Shown: piece after piece, positions 40,001 to 55,000 of the stretch
Numbering within the stretch: the stretch's first letter is position 1
Layout: each line of letters begins with the position of its first letter
Assembly (NCBI GenBank): GCA_963681505.1
Contig: OY811993.1
Span: forward strand, 994,693 to 1,058,692
Reading direction: 5' to 3'
DNA length: 64,000 nt
From: Eunapius fragilis
Lineage: Eukaryota > Porifera > Demospongiae > Spongillida > Spongillidae
Position numbers and translations under genes: made by a program
Notes under the pieces: model-generated
Told to the model about the DNA's origin: nothing
The model's database searches: none
Seen by the model: the letters and a program-made list of their open reading frames with translations, nothing else

Positions 40001-43000
40001 GTATGGCAGACTACTTAATTCCTATGCAGACACTGGCGGACAGAGGGGAGGGGGGGGGGAATTAGGTCTGCAACTCGAGCACATCTCCCTTTGGTGTCTC
40101 TGTCCCTCCAATCCCCCTTTAATTTAATTCTGGATCTGCCACTGGCTTCACATATATTTATTATCAATGTGTCCCCCCCCCCCCCCCCGCCAAATCCTGG
40201 ATCCAGGGCTAATTCCAACAATACATAAAGATTTTTGTTGAGAATAGGAATGGCTGCGCTCAAATGGGTGGTTTAGCTATCTATCACATACATACACATG
40301 CAAACATACACACAACCCACAGCTGGAAAAACAATATAAGTGCTTGCATACTATACATACCACCCACACACATGGACAGTGCTCACATACATGTACCTGC
40401 ATGTTTCTTACTAAACACTGTTCAATGGCCAGTAACACAAAACAGGATGCCATGGTGATCGATGGCATGAAGGCTGGCACTCATCACTCACATACACAAT
40501 GGCAAAGATGCTGGTGTATGTGTTTAAAATAAAAAACATGTACTACAATCTGGTAAATGGACATACCTTGCTCTAACTATACCTCACAGTAGTGAGCTCT
40601 TCATACCTCTTGAGGATACCATGCATCACTTGTGCAACTTCGTTGCCTCCTGAGCGTGGGATCCAACAATTTGAGGAAAAGAACCACGGCCGTACCCAGA
40701 GGGGGTTCGTAACCAAGGAAACCTATAAAATTGCTAGTAATTTTACTAGCAATTTTATTGGTTTCCTTGGTTACGGAAACCCCTCTGGGTATGGCCCTGA
40801 GAACCTAGAGTGCTTTTAGAGATGCTATCTGCTTACACTATGGCTGGCAACCTCCGTTATTACCATCACATTGCATATGTGGCTCCATCTATACTGTGGA
40901 GCATGCCATGAATTGCCCATCAGGAGGCTTTCCTTCAATTCGACACAATGAGGTGCGAGATCTGACCTCAGTGAGGTATGTCACAATGCAGAACCTACAT
41001 GTACTTTGCAGCCATTGCAGAGTGAGTGCCTTACATATAAGTCTGCCAATGCAAAGCTAGGAGCAAGAAAAACAACGAATTATCTGACCTCTTAAAACCT
41101 CTTCCAATTTCACACTGTATGTTCCAATTACTACCAAACATGAGGAAATCATCTTCATTAAGTAATTTTTTACTGTTCTTTTGCAGCTTTTTTCAATAAC
41201 ACGGTGTTTTATTCATAAAGCAAGCATCATGGTGACTGCTATCTTGTTACGAACTAGATTTTTTCAAGCTATGTGGATTGCATAGAAGCAGGTCCAGTGT
41301 AAATTATATGCAACTATTTTGTGCCAATTGCAGAAAATTAACTGTTCCTTTATAAATTGAATGCTATACACCAACACTATTTCATGATTTTGACCAATTC
41401 CAATTGTTCTTAACTTTCTAAACTAATGAATAAATAAATACACATGTTTACACAAAGGTTGTGGTAGTATATAGCAATTTCAGTTCTTTAACATCAATGT
41501 TTGTTAGTCTGTTCGTTTTCGTCAGATGTATATTGTTCTTTAACACTCCCTGTGCGTTCAATTCCTCAGTTTGAGTAATTCCTCTTATTTTCCATTTTAC
41601 CCAGATTGTTGAGTAGGTGCCCACCCACCACTCGATGATTATTTTGCCTCCTTCTAACAAAGATGTCACTTGTCCAATTTGTGGCTCTTCTTCCTCATAT
41701 TTCTTCAGTTTGCAAGCCACAAATTCTCCAACACAAAATGGAACAGTAACTTCTCCAGCAGGATGTGGCACCTGAAAGTCTTGGCAACTTTCATGACTTG
41801 ATCCATTTTTAAGTGCCTACAGTTATAAAACATTGTAATATTCTGAGGGAATTTCTAGTGAACGTTAATTCAGTAGTATTGTAATTCAGTAGTATTCAGT
41901 AGTATTATAGTATTGTGTATGATCTGACTAGGAAAAACATTTGCTACATTTGAAATTTCTGCATTGCAAATTTCTTTTGAACATGTACATGTAATAGTTT
42001 TTTGGCTATTTGGTTATGTTGAAATTTCAGGGCTTGCAAATTCATTACAGAGAATAAACAGGATTTTTGATATTGTTGAAATTTCAGGGCTGGCATCATT
42101 ATTGCAAAATAGTAGCAGGCATAAGGTGAATATTTAGGACTTCTACAGTGATACACCAGGGAGATTTCAAAGTGCACAATGCTGTCTTTTTTTAATGCTT
42201 GTAGAATGTGACACTACTCTGTATAGTACTGTATGAAATATGCATGTACATGTTTTTGTTTCCCATTATAGTACATTTCCAAGTGGGTTAGCTCGTGCTT
42301 AAAGAAATAATATAATCCATGCAACACAAGTGTTGGTACTTGGAGTGAGGCAGTTTCATCCTCTCGTTCAGTTGTCATCAATGTTTGATCTGGTGACTGT
42401 AATACTTGGTCTGCAACTGGAATTGAGCCATGGACTGCTGTGACCTGCTGTGATCGAGAAGTTTTTTTTCTTTTGCCACAGTACACCTATGTGTTGTGCA
42501 TAAAGACAAAGTAAGTAATAAAAATGTGTTGCATTTTGTTGTTTGAAACAATTTTTGCATAATACACACTAAACAATCATATGCATGCTTTTTGTAGAGA
42601 AATCACCTCAGGAATTGTGTCAATGCTATCATGGTGGCGTTTCAACAACTGATTAGAAACATTAGTAGCAACGGTAGGTTGTATGAGAGTTGAGTAACAG
42701 CTTTCAATTATGGTTTCAATTTCCCTGAGAACTGATGTTGGTTCAGCTGCATTAAATGAAAGAAAAGTAGCTTCGAACTGTTCAAGAAAATCAAACCACC
42801 ATGATTTATCCATTTCATCTAGAGATTGGTACTTTGGCACTGCACTCCTAATTGCAGAGAAGTCAATTTTTTCTGCATTTGGTTTGACAAGGGATGGATG
42901 ACCCACAGGAATTCGCTGTAATAAAAGAAACAATGCTATTTTAAGATATAGTTAACAAACGCATGCTATACCTTTAATAGCTGTAGGCCTAGTTGTTGTT

Positions 43001-52000: not shown

Positions 52001-55000
52001 GGTACAAAGGACTGGAATGAGGCACAAAAAAGATATCCAAATTTTGCCAATGAAAAACAGTTAGCTGACCTTTTTCTTAAATGCAACTTTAGTCCAATAC
52101 CTGCTGCATTCAGTGATTACTGTTCGAGGGCTGTTAGGTATGTGCATGTTTTACAAACAATGCAAATGAATAGAATAATTGCATAATGCGCACTGTATCA
52201 TTCACTTCAGATCCAAGACAGTTCATTCTAGTCCAATGGATATTGATGCACAATCACTTGTTGTTTGGTCAAATGATAAGAAGCACTCCACTATTCTTGT
52301 ACCGAAATGTATATCTTCAATTTCATACGAAGAAGTAAAGTCTATGATCCCAGGTTTTGCGGGCTTTTGTCTCTCATTTGTTGCTTTAGAGAAAGAAGAA
52401 TGTGAGCACGTGAGTTTTGCTGGTGTTATTCTACTGGTGCATTTATAATTAACCCAACGGAATGACATACACTTATTTTTACCTACAGATTGTGTCCATT
52501 TTACGAACAGTGAAAGCCATCAATACTGCTTCAAATATTACAACATACTCTGTGGTTGTGTTTACATCCTCATATGAGCCTGAAGGGTTATGGGAGCTGC
52601 AAAGGCAACTTTGTGCTGCACACATGCTAGTGCAGACAGCATATTATACTTCACAGGAGCCGCCTTCAGGTCATTAATGGTTTTGTACTTTCGCACAATG
52701 AAATTAATAAATAATTAACACCACAGGAACTTTGCTGAAACAAATGGTGATCCCATTTCTAATAGCTGCATCAGACAAGACCTGCATAAAGAAAGAACAA
52801 CAAAATTTCTTTACAGGCACTAATATCTATGAGCAGCTAATATCAATACTATCGACTGAGAATGACCGTGTTCTTTCCTGTGGAAATGACAAAAGTAAGT
52901 TATCACAATATGCACGCAATGATGAAGTTGCCCATGCAAGTAAAATGCAGTTTTTATCAACTTAACATATTTAAGTGTCAAAATGTCCTTTTTTAGGTAA
53001 TGTAGCTTTTGGTGGACTTGAAAATTCAATGCATGCTAAACCACGGTACATCACTTTTGGTAGAAGGGAAAATAGAGGTCAGATTTTGGTGCACTTGAAA
53101 TTTCAAAGCATCTGAAACCTCTTGAAATTTCTAAGCAAATTTAAGCATGGTACTGTGCATCAGTGTATTTGTTTAAAATATTGTACTTGAAATTTCAAAG
53201 CATCCAAATATTCTAATAGTTTTCTAAGTGTCCAAAACCACTACTATGTCAAGTTTGGTACACGTGAAATTTCTATGCATGCAAAAGAAGATGGTATTTC
53301 TCAGCATTAGTTTTTTGCATGTTAATATTTTGGAAGGTCTGAAATTTTCTACAGAGCAGATGGGCCAGATTTCAGAAGTGCATTTACATAAATATATTCC
53401 CAAACATGCAACCATGTAGAACTTGCACTCCATAGAATAGCACGTTTACTATTGCATGCATTAACACATACACTGATGTTATGATGTTATTTTTCAGCCA
53501 TTCCAATAATTGCAATGAAGAATCGATGAAACGTTATTGTGCTACATGAAACAGCAACAGAACTCGTTACTCTTATTAGACAAGGAGAAGAAGAAACAGA
53601 TAGTGAAGAACACGATGATAATGAAGAACGCGATGAATACACACGTGACCCAAGTGTTGAGTTTGGATTGTACTAATTATGAACACTTCTAATGTATTGT
53701 GTACACTCATATTCTGTTGCATTATATATGCATTATATATATGTATTATGTATTATGTTTGGCTTTCTAATTTGTTGTTGTAAAAGTTGTTCATCTTTTT
53801 AAAACGATTACTAATTCCAATAAGAATAGTCAGAAAAAACGTAATGCAATAGTACAGGTTCGACGGAAAGGGTCTTTTTGTTGCTATTTTATCAGCAGCC
53901 TAAGCCGAATTGATAAAATGGCACATAAAAACTCAAGTCATGCAACACTTATTTTTAAAATGGAATTTACACTCTGAAATTGGAAGAGGTTTTAATTGAA
54001 AAGTTTACATAAAACCCACAACCAATAACAATTCTTCCACATGTCACCACTCCTAATTAAAGAGGCAGTACTTATGAAACCACAAAGACCTGTGAGTTTC
54101 AGGCAGCAGCTAATACAACTACCAGCCCTTCTTCAACTGTCCACATTTGATACATTTGATACACAAACATACAAACTTGTGTCAGCACCATACAAAACAC
54201 CACCGAACAACTTTACAGTCTGCTAGCAAGTATTATATGATGAAAACACAACGCTTTACATTTGAGTAGTAGTTCTCCTGGTGGAGGTTGGAAGGGTGAC
54301 TGGCACAGTCCATGAGCTACATCACATTGTTCGGTATGATCAGTATGATGGGTTCAGTCCCTGGTCCATAGCAGGCAGTCATGTAGGTAGCCCACTGAGC
54401 CTGGAACCAGAGCTGCTGGCAGACCACCTGGGTATACCTCCACTCAATCATCAGGAGTTTTTCTGACCAATCTGATGGGAAGAGGGGGGGGGGGGGGGGG
54501 AAGGAGCTCAGAGAGCTTACCAGAAAATCTGACTGGATGTCTTCTCATCACTGCTGCCTCCTCCCCATCAATTCACAGTGATGGGGAGGAGGGACTGATG
54601 GGGAAGAGGGGAACGGTACAGCACAAACAAAAGCCTGACCATCTCTTGAGCAATGTTCTCCACATTGTTATTATCTAGGAGCACATAGGTGGCTCCACCA
54701 TTCTTACTGCAGTGACAATGTGCCAACATATGCTCCGTGTATGGGATACAGGTAAAGTGTAGGAGATATGTGTGCTCCCAATGGGGGGAGGGGGTGGACA
54801 TTTCATCTCCCTTAACTAAAACCACACCTCTTCCTACTTCCTGTAACTAAAATGACTCCACAGGGTCAGGGATTAGAGGAGAGTTTAAAACACTATGAGT
54901 GAGGACCAATGAGTGAAGACCAATACATGTAGGATACGCAGCCTTCAGGACGAGGGGGGGGGGGGGGGTTTGAATTTGGTTAATAGGTGAACTTACAATA

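What the first reader, a model, noticed from the sequence alone, without database searches (positions are those of the whole stretch)
41092..53995. 12.9-kb TTAA-flanked transposon carrying a divergent DUF7869-like gene and a ParB-like gene
Seen: 31-bp inverted ends with the outer 17 bp identical, TTAA on both sides, and two divergent multi-exon genes (10 and 11 exons) whose stops lie about 0.35 kb inside each end. Every junction keeps phase, so the coding was under recent selection. Known: TTAA targets belong to piggyBac and Kolobok types, whose transposases look different. Inference: a two-component mobile system in which a DUF7869 RNase-H-like protein cuts and joins, and a ParB/Srx-fold protein binds the ends or acts as a partner. 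I do not know of a described element of this make-up.
Basis: partly seen in the sequence, partly recalled or inferred. Interest (0 to 1): 0.92.

Follow-up and report, generated by a model that had tools for sequence, protein, structure and literature searches.

The report
Transposon with a ParB-like partner gene
A recently active jumping gene, probably in a sponge genome, carries a likely cutting-and-joining enzyme and, back to back with it, a relative of the bacterial chromosome-partition protein ParB, with the same short palindromes repeated near both of its ends.

Summary
In detail: a real, recent, mobile element. Two other copies (C9, C2) hold both genes intact; C9 is 99.8-99.9% identical.

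Corrections: target duplications are 4 bp and AT-rich, not TTAA-specific (9 perfect of 12 end pairs, 3 of the 9 TTAA). A 2.68-kb foreign element splits the shared start region of the window copy.

New here: the palindrome TGAAATTTCA, in five families part of a 32-bp dyad, recurs 0.5-1.2 kb from both ends in 10 of 12 bounded elements, parS-like in layout.

Closest precedent: an algal Sola1 transposon with a ParB-methyltransferase gene opposite its transposase (PMC12477816, passages). Verdict: new variant of a known kind, perhaps Sola-like. That B binds the palindromes and pairs the ends is inference.

The parts
41092..41095 (.). left target-site duplication TTAA
53992..53995 (.). right target-site duplication TTAA
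41096..41112 (+). left terminal inverted repeat, 17 bp perfect (weaker match to 41129)
53975..53991 (-). right terminal inverted repeat, 17 bp perfect (weaker match from 53958)
41448..47284 (-). gene A, DUF7869 protein, 850 aa, 11 exons: 46993-47284, 46783-46845, 44167-44729, 43993-44114, 43634-43892, 43427-43579, 43262-43367, 42972-43207, 42607-42915, 42406-42486, 41448-41816
   Evidence: DUF7869 E 2.4e-65; open in C9 and C2 copies
43014..43819 (-). transposase-like core of A; DDD triad D372 (43817-43819), D458 (43505-43507), D500 (43320-43322)
41601..41696 (-). SH3/Tudor/BAH-like C-terminal segment of A (weak)
   Evidence: SH3-C_UBE2O E 0.011, below its cut-off; BAH-like rows at E about 0.1
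50085..53676 (+). gene B, ParB-like protein, 705 aa, 11 exons: 50085-50249, 50354-50537, 50600-50653, 50717-50815, 51078-51475, 51531-51644, 51704-52137, 52211-52409, 52489-52669, 52727-52894, 53555-53676 (last exon uncertain)
51080..51475 (+). ParB-fold domain of B; motif GGNHSRIA at 51287-51310, RHNRATDF at 51425-51448
   Evidence: fold modelled on the Ephydatia relative P0084
41951..42086 (.). left subterminal array: TGAAATTTCA at 42020 and 42077, partial copy at 41951; in the last intron of A
53019..53273 (.). right subterminal array: TGAAATTTCA at 53096 and 53188, partial copies at 53019, 53123 and 53265; in the last intron of B; some copies with an outer TTTGGT arm
47285..50084 (.). shared start region of the two divergent genes, about 114 bp in the intact element, here split by the nested insert
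47358..50039 (.). nested foreign element, 2682 bp, ends CACGGCTGTT..AACAGCCGTG, 4-bp duplication ACCT; not part of the family

Best explanation
It is a DNA transposon of the DDE/D cut-and-paste type. Gene A (DUF7869) is the transposase: a DDD RNase-H-like core that cuts and joins at ends beginning AACC and duplicates 4 bp of AT-rich target. Gene B is a conserved second component with a ParB-type fold, expressed divergently from the same short start region. B most likely recognises the palindromes (core TGAAATTTCA, often within TTTGGT-N5-TGAAATTTCA-N5-ACCAAA) repeated 0.5-1.2 kb inside each end, much as bacterial ParB recognises parS, and helps to bring together ends that lie 10 kb apart so that A can act. 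Shown here: mobility, intact copies, the A-B pair in several diverged families, the folds (as predicted models), the triad, purifying selection and the palindrome arrays. Inferred: that A catalyses transposition (about 0.93), that B is a working part and not cargo (about 0.85), that B rather than A binds the palindromes (about 0.5), and that its job is pairing of ends (about 0.35).
Confidence: 0.5

Rival explanations
1. B is an epigenetic or anti-silencing factor: it binds the repeated palindromes and changes the chromatin or methylation of the element, like VANC proteins of Arabidopsis VANDAL elements or the proposed role of algal ParB-methyltransferases. It does not act in the transposition reaction itself.
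For: VANC targets often form tandem repeats in the TE (PMC5735166, abstract). The authors of PMC12477816 suggest that ParB-methyltransferases may bind and modify their own transposon. A ends in a weak chromatin-reader-like segment. Many DUF7869 clusters have no ParB motif nearby.
Against: No methyltransferase domain was found in B by Pfam. VANC targets vary considerably between related TEs, whereas the palindrome here is the same in diverged families. The arrays sit near both ends and remain in derivatives that lost most of the genes (L053, L054), which fits a role in moving the element.
Confidence: 0.27
2. The palindromes are subterminal binding sites of the transposase A. B is a regulator or dosage sensor of the shared start region and does not bind the ends.
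For: The inner TIR contains the half-site TGAAATTGGAA. Subterminal transposase sites are common in large transposons (recalled).
Against: The DUF7869 loci without a ParB motif or B remnant that I could read have no palindrome: L059-L061 in 7.5 kb each and L065 in 1.7 kb. Their ends were not fixed, so this is weak.
Confidence: 0.17
3. B is cargo, a captured host gene without a role in the element.
For: Few B relatives were found: six proteins at E up to 0.01 among 5915 candidates scored, the named ones from Ephydatia. Ten of 21 ParB motifs are unlinked.
Against: The same divergent order in all 11 linked pairs and in five families by sequence, and purifying selection.
Confidence: 0.04

Closest known systems
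Sola1-1_Ec32 of Ectocarpus and related algal transposons with ParB-methyltransferase genes (PMC12477816, passages seen)
   Same: Large DNA transposon; a ParB-like protein encoded on the strand opposite to the transposase; described by its authors as a possible class of transposon accessory proteins.
   Different: There 21.5 kb and a 1104-aa ParB fused to an N4C/N6A methyltransferase; here Pfam finds no methyltransferase in B. Whether the Sola1 transposase is a DUF7869 protein could not be checked.
Sola superfamily in general (Sola2 passages in PMC3627910; original description recalled)
   Same: 4-bp AT-rich duplications; 888-aa transposase in one family against 850 aa here; DDD triad (recalled for Sola); accessory genes known (Fanzor).
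   Different: No Sola sequence was available for comparison.
Kolobok (PMC9587614, abstract, outline and passages)
   Same: Ends are 5'-RR (AA) and YY-3' (TT); TTAA at this copy; extra genes known in some lineages.
   Different: TTAA is not required here; the C/DxxH signature is in 1 of 67 rows.
Bacterial ParB/parS partition systems (recalled, plus the structure matches)
   Different: Eukaryotic transposon; no ParA was looked for; TGAAATTTCA is not parS; CTP binding unknown; no Pfam ParB match.
VANDAL/VANC anti-silencing (PMC5735166, abstract)
   Same: TE-encoded sequence-specific protein whose targets are often tandem repeats in the TE.
   Different: VANC targets vary between related TEs, the palindrome here does not; whether B affects silencing is unknown; relation of the proteins was not compared.

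Membership tests
piggyBac | TTAA-specific target duplication | tested here: not met
   9 perfect duplications: TTAA 3, TTTA 2, AGAA, CTTA, TTAT, TGTA; 3 further end pairs imperfect
piggyBac | piggyBac transposase domain | tested here: not met
   A matches DUF7869 and no piggyBac model in Pfam at E up to 5
Kolobok | TTAA-specific target duplication | tested here: not met
   as above; definition from a PMC9587614 passage. Another passage there says that the KolobokP lineage shows no strong target preference, so this feature alone is not final
Kolobok | C/DxxH between second and third catalytic residue | tested here: not met
   1 of 67 alignment rows
Kolobok | 5'-RR and YY-3' termini | tested here: met
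   AACC...GGTT; not specific
Sola | 4-bp target duplications | tested here: met
Sola | DDD transposase | tested here: met
   D372/D458/D500; that Sola is DDD is recalled
Sola | sequence similarity to Sola transposases | not testable with these tools
   no Sola sequence or model at hand; DUF7869 is in 0 papers of the library
Algal ParB-methyltransferase transposons | ParB-like protein on the strand opposite the transposase | tested here: met
Algal ParB-methyltransferase transposons | methyltransferase domain in the same protein | tested here: inconclusive
   no Pfam match in full B, but the C-terminal half of B was not modelled
ParB/Noc CTPase family | ParB N-domain fold | tested here: met
ParB/Noc CTPase family | sequence-profile match to ParB | tested here: not met
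   no ParB model matched by B, P0084, P0086, P0087 or P0089 in Pfam
ParB/Noc CTPase family | CTP-dependent clamp on palindromic DNA | not testable with these tools
   needs protein
Sulfiredoxin | catalytic cysteine in GGCHR (motif recalled) | tested here: not met
   B has GGNHSR

The most novel reading that the evidence does not exclude
A eukaryotic transposon group that uses its own partition-type system, a ParB-like clamp loading on parS-like 32-bp palindromes in arrays at both ends, to pair distant ends (or to steer or spread along its DNA), together with a DUF7869 DDD transposase that belongs to no described superfamily.
Probability: 0.2. Interest if true: 0.93.

Novelty: new variant of a known kind. 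Interest (0 to 1): 0.74.

Why it matters
DUF7869 is a domain of unknown function found in many animals and a liverwort. The evidence here makes it a likely transposase, so many such genes are probably transposons or genes derived from them. A ParB-type protein kept with a transposase across diverged families, with conserved palindromes at both ends, gives a directly testable case of a bacterial-style partition module in eukaryotic DNA.

Tried and rejected
Rejected: TTAA-specific piggyBac or Kolobok type (duplications and signature do not fit); sulfiredoxin (no catalytic cysteine); chance inverted repeat (other copies); cargo gene (linkage, selection).

Led nowhere: DUF7869 profile against IMG/VR (77 pattern matches, none confirmed); P0084 against prokaryote genomes (20 pattern matches, none confirmed); P0084 and profiles of A and B against PDB sequences (nothing significant); NCBIfam and PHROGs with P0084 and P0001 (nothing significant). 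Papers: DUF7869 in none; for ParB in transposons, searches (partly capped lists: 20 of 32, 2 of 2, 20 of 57, 1 of 1, 10 of 351 listed), the Ectocarpus paper being the only relevant one that I saw listed. Two further searches on Sola and one on subterminal repeats gave no Sola sequence. Ends of the intronless DUF7869 family L059-L061 could not be fixed.

Limits: the first TIR search contained TTAA in its pattern, which favours TTAA copies; searches dropped it, but their lists are capped at 100 places or mixed with chance hits. L050, L051 and L052 had only one end read and are not in the count of 12; L055, L056 and L058 have no palindrome and were treated as chance terminus hits. The family search works by exon, so 46 clusters is a lower bound. 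The ParB pattern demands exact GGNH(S/T)RIA codons, so other B genes are missed; a DUF7869 cluster on C1 has palindromes nearby but no motif hit. The 8 unlinked ParB motifs outside C11 were not read. The P value treats copies of one family as independent. Palindrome places were listed only for 50 sites on C1.
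Full report
Observation. The inverted ends, the TTAA duplication and the two divergent multi-exon genes are present as described. Gene A runs 47284 to 41448 on the minus strand (850 aa). Gene B runs 50085 to 53676 on the plus strand (705 aa). Each has 11 exons in my models and every intron is GT-AG. A diverged relative on C11 aligns with most exons of B and with the outer exons of A, and lacks a stretch of B that I therefore read as an intron. 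The last exon of B is uncertain.

Copies. The genome in which the window lies (G000, 218.9 Mb, 24 contigs, unnamed) has 33 matches of the 21-base terminus at up to 3 mismatches against 3 for the reversed control. Two further full copies exist. C9 is 10,206 bp and 99.8-99.9% identical to the window copy outside the nested insert. C2 is 10,449 bp and 96.7-99.5% identical in its long pieces, lowest in the half with a microsatellite intron. All 11 exons of A and all 11 of B, with two bases on each side, align over their whole length in both copies without gaps, and the frames hold no stops. Amino-acid differences from the window are 2 (A) and 0 (B) for C9, and 6 and 4 for C2. The window copy carries a 2682-bp nested element in the roughly 114-bp region between the two start codons, with an ACCT duplication; C9 shows the empty site.

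Target. Of 12 elements with both ends read, 9 have a perfect 4-bp duplication: TTAA (window, L043, L044+L045), TTTA (C9, L054), AGAA (C2), CTTA (C11a), TTAT (L046), TGTA (L062). Three do not: C11b GTAT/GTAA, L053 TTAA/ACAA, L047 ATAA/TTAT. The first search favoured TTAA by its pattern, so TTAA is if anything over-counted.

Linkage. A DNA pattern for the ParB motif hits 21 places, the reversed control none. DUF7869 gives 90 exon matches in 46 clusters. Eleven of the 21 motifs lie 4.6-7.5 kb from a cluster and all 11 pairs are divergent. Random placement would give this many within 15 kb with P about 2.5e-19, if every motif were independent. They are not: three of the 11 are the window family and four share another motif sequence, so the 11 hold five different motif sequences. 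Ten motifs are unlinked; 2 of them belong to the C11 copies, which lost the DUF7869 core, and 8 were not read. At the sequence level, pieces of both genes in divergent order occur in five families: window, C11, the L054 group, L062 and L063. Thirty-five of 46 DUF7869 clusters have no exact ParB motif within 15 kb. One of them is L062, which still has the C-terminal half of B; others include an apparently intronless family whose 891-aa frame gives five matches.

Selection. Against the C11 relatives (themselves partly broken), dN/dS is about 0.23 for A (296 codons) and 0.15 for B (646 codons). Against L062 and L063 synonymous sites are saturated, with pN/pS 0.24-0.50.

Palindromes. TGAAATTTCA occurs four times in the 64-kb window, all in the element, two near each end, with 0.13 expected. 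All 11 strand matches of the 9-mer TGAAATTTC fall in the same two clusters. Of the 12 bounded elements, 10 have the palindrome in both outer 1.3 kb; L046 has 14 copies, nearly all in its left half, and L047 none. These 12 fall into six families, of which four show it at both ends. Of the one-ended loci, L050 has 2, L051 4 and L052 10; 13 unrelated loci have 1 in 39 kb. Genome-wide there are 1018 sites against 254 of the reversed control. Of the 50 listed, 27 lie in seven clusters. Beyond the DUF7869 gene of the linked pair on C6 there are two palindromes 71 bp apart, in 1.7 kb; in the same length beyond an unlinked DUF7869 gene on C4 there are none. The three 7.5-kb stretches of the intronless family have none. 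As DNA the window element matches L043, L046 and L052 only in stretches of 30-61 bases, L047 and L064 not at all, and L062 and L063 mainly in gene A, so the shared palindrome is not simply unchanged common sequence. The site is larger than 10 bases: TTTGGT or its mirror stands at a fixed distance (5 or 6 of 6 letters) in 22 of 92 half-sites, against 0 or 1 of 92 at 11 shifted positions. The 22 are 4 of 8 in the window, 2 of 4 in C11, 9 of 20 in L043, 4 of 8 in L062, 2 of 4 in L064, 1 of 28 in L046 and 0 of 20 in L052. I noticed the arms on four of these sequences first. Both arrays of the window element lie in the last intron of A and of B. The inner TIR carries one half of the core palindrome.

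Mechanism. A is most likely the transposase. B is most likely a DNA-binding partner that recognises the arrays. Whether it pairs the ends, regulates, or fights silencing cannot be decided from sequence; I favour pairing of ends, at about 0.35. The C11 pair, 99.9% identical to each other at two sites though broken in both genes, suggests that the proteins can act in trans.

Comparison. The nearest published case seen is Sola1-1_Ec32 of Ectocarpus: a 21.5-kb transposon with a ParB-methyltransferase gene on the strand opposite the transposase; [quoted passage not shown] the cited works were not read). Sola2 elements have AT-rich 4-bp duplications and, in one family, an 888-aa transposase (PMC3627910, passages). 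DDD chemistry (recalled for Sola) and 4-bp duplications fit Sola, but no Sola sequence was at hand. Kolobok and piggyBac do not fit by target, and Kolobok also not by its signature (PMC9587614, passages; the KolobokP lineage is said there to show no strong target preference). I therefore call it a new variant of a known kind: a probable Sola-like element with a stand-alone ParB-like partner and parS-like end arrays.

Noticed in passing
window 47358-50039: Nested 2682-bp element with CACGGCTGTT ends and ACCT duplication; a further similar end lies at 46660-46677 inside a large intron of gene A.
   Followed up: partly
window about 45400-46150: Long CA/TG-rich microsatellite in an intron of gene A, which appears to differ in length in the C2 copy.
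   Followed up: no
C11:6900590-6908759 and C11:7183330-7191494 of G000 (L057, L048+L049): Two copies 99.9% identical to each other that lack the DUF7869 core and have a broken B gene: probably moved in trans recently.
   Followed up: partly
L059, L060, L061: Repeated, apparently intronless DUF7869 family (891-aa frame at five places) without B or palindromes in the stretches read; ends not fixed.
   Followed up: partly
L062 3549-3746: B fragment 82% identical to the Ephydatia protein P0084 over 66 aa, against 37-44% to the window's B in its pieces: a lineage shared with Ephydatia, by descent or transfer.
   Followed up: no
G000 C1:8381983-8382456 and C1:8383482-8383562: DUF7869 cluster without an exact ParB motif but with two palindromes about 1 kb downstream, the geometry of the window element.
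   Followed up: no
protein P0028 (Branchiostoma floridae): DUF7869 joined to an exocyst Sec3 C-terminal domain in one predicted protein: domestication or a gene-prediction artefact.
   Followed up: no
window 40701-40782: Hairpin of two 40-nt arms, 90% complementary, 310 bp outside the left end.
   Followed up: no
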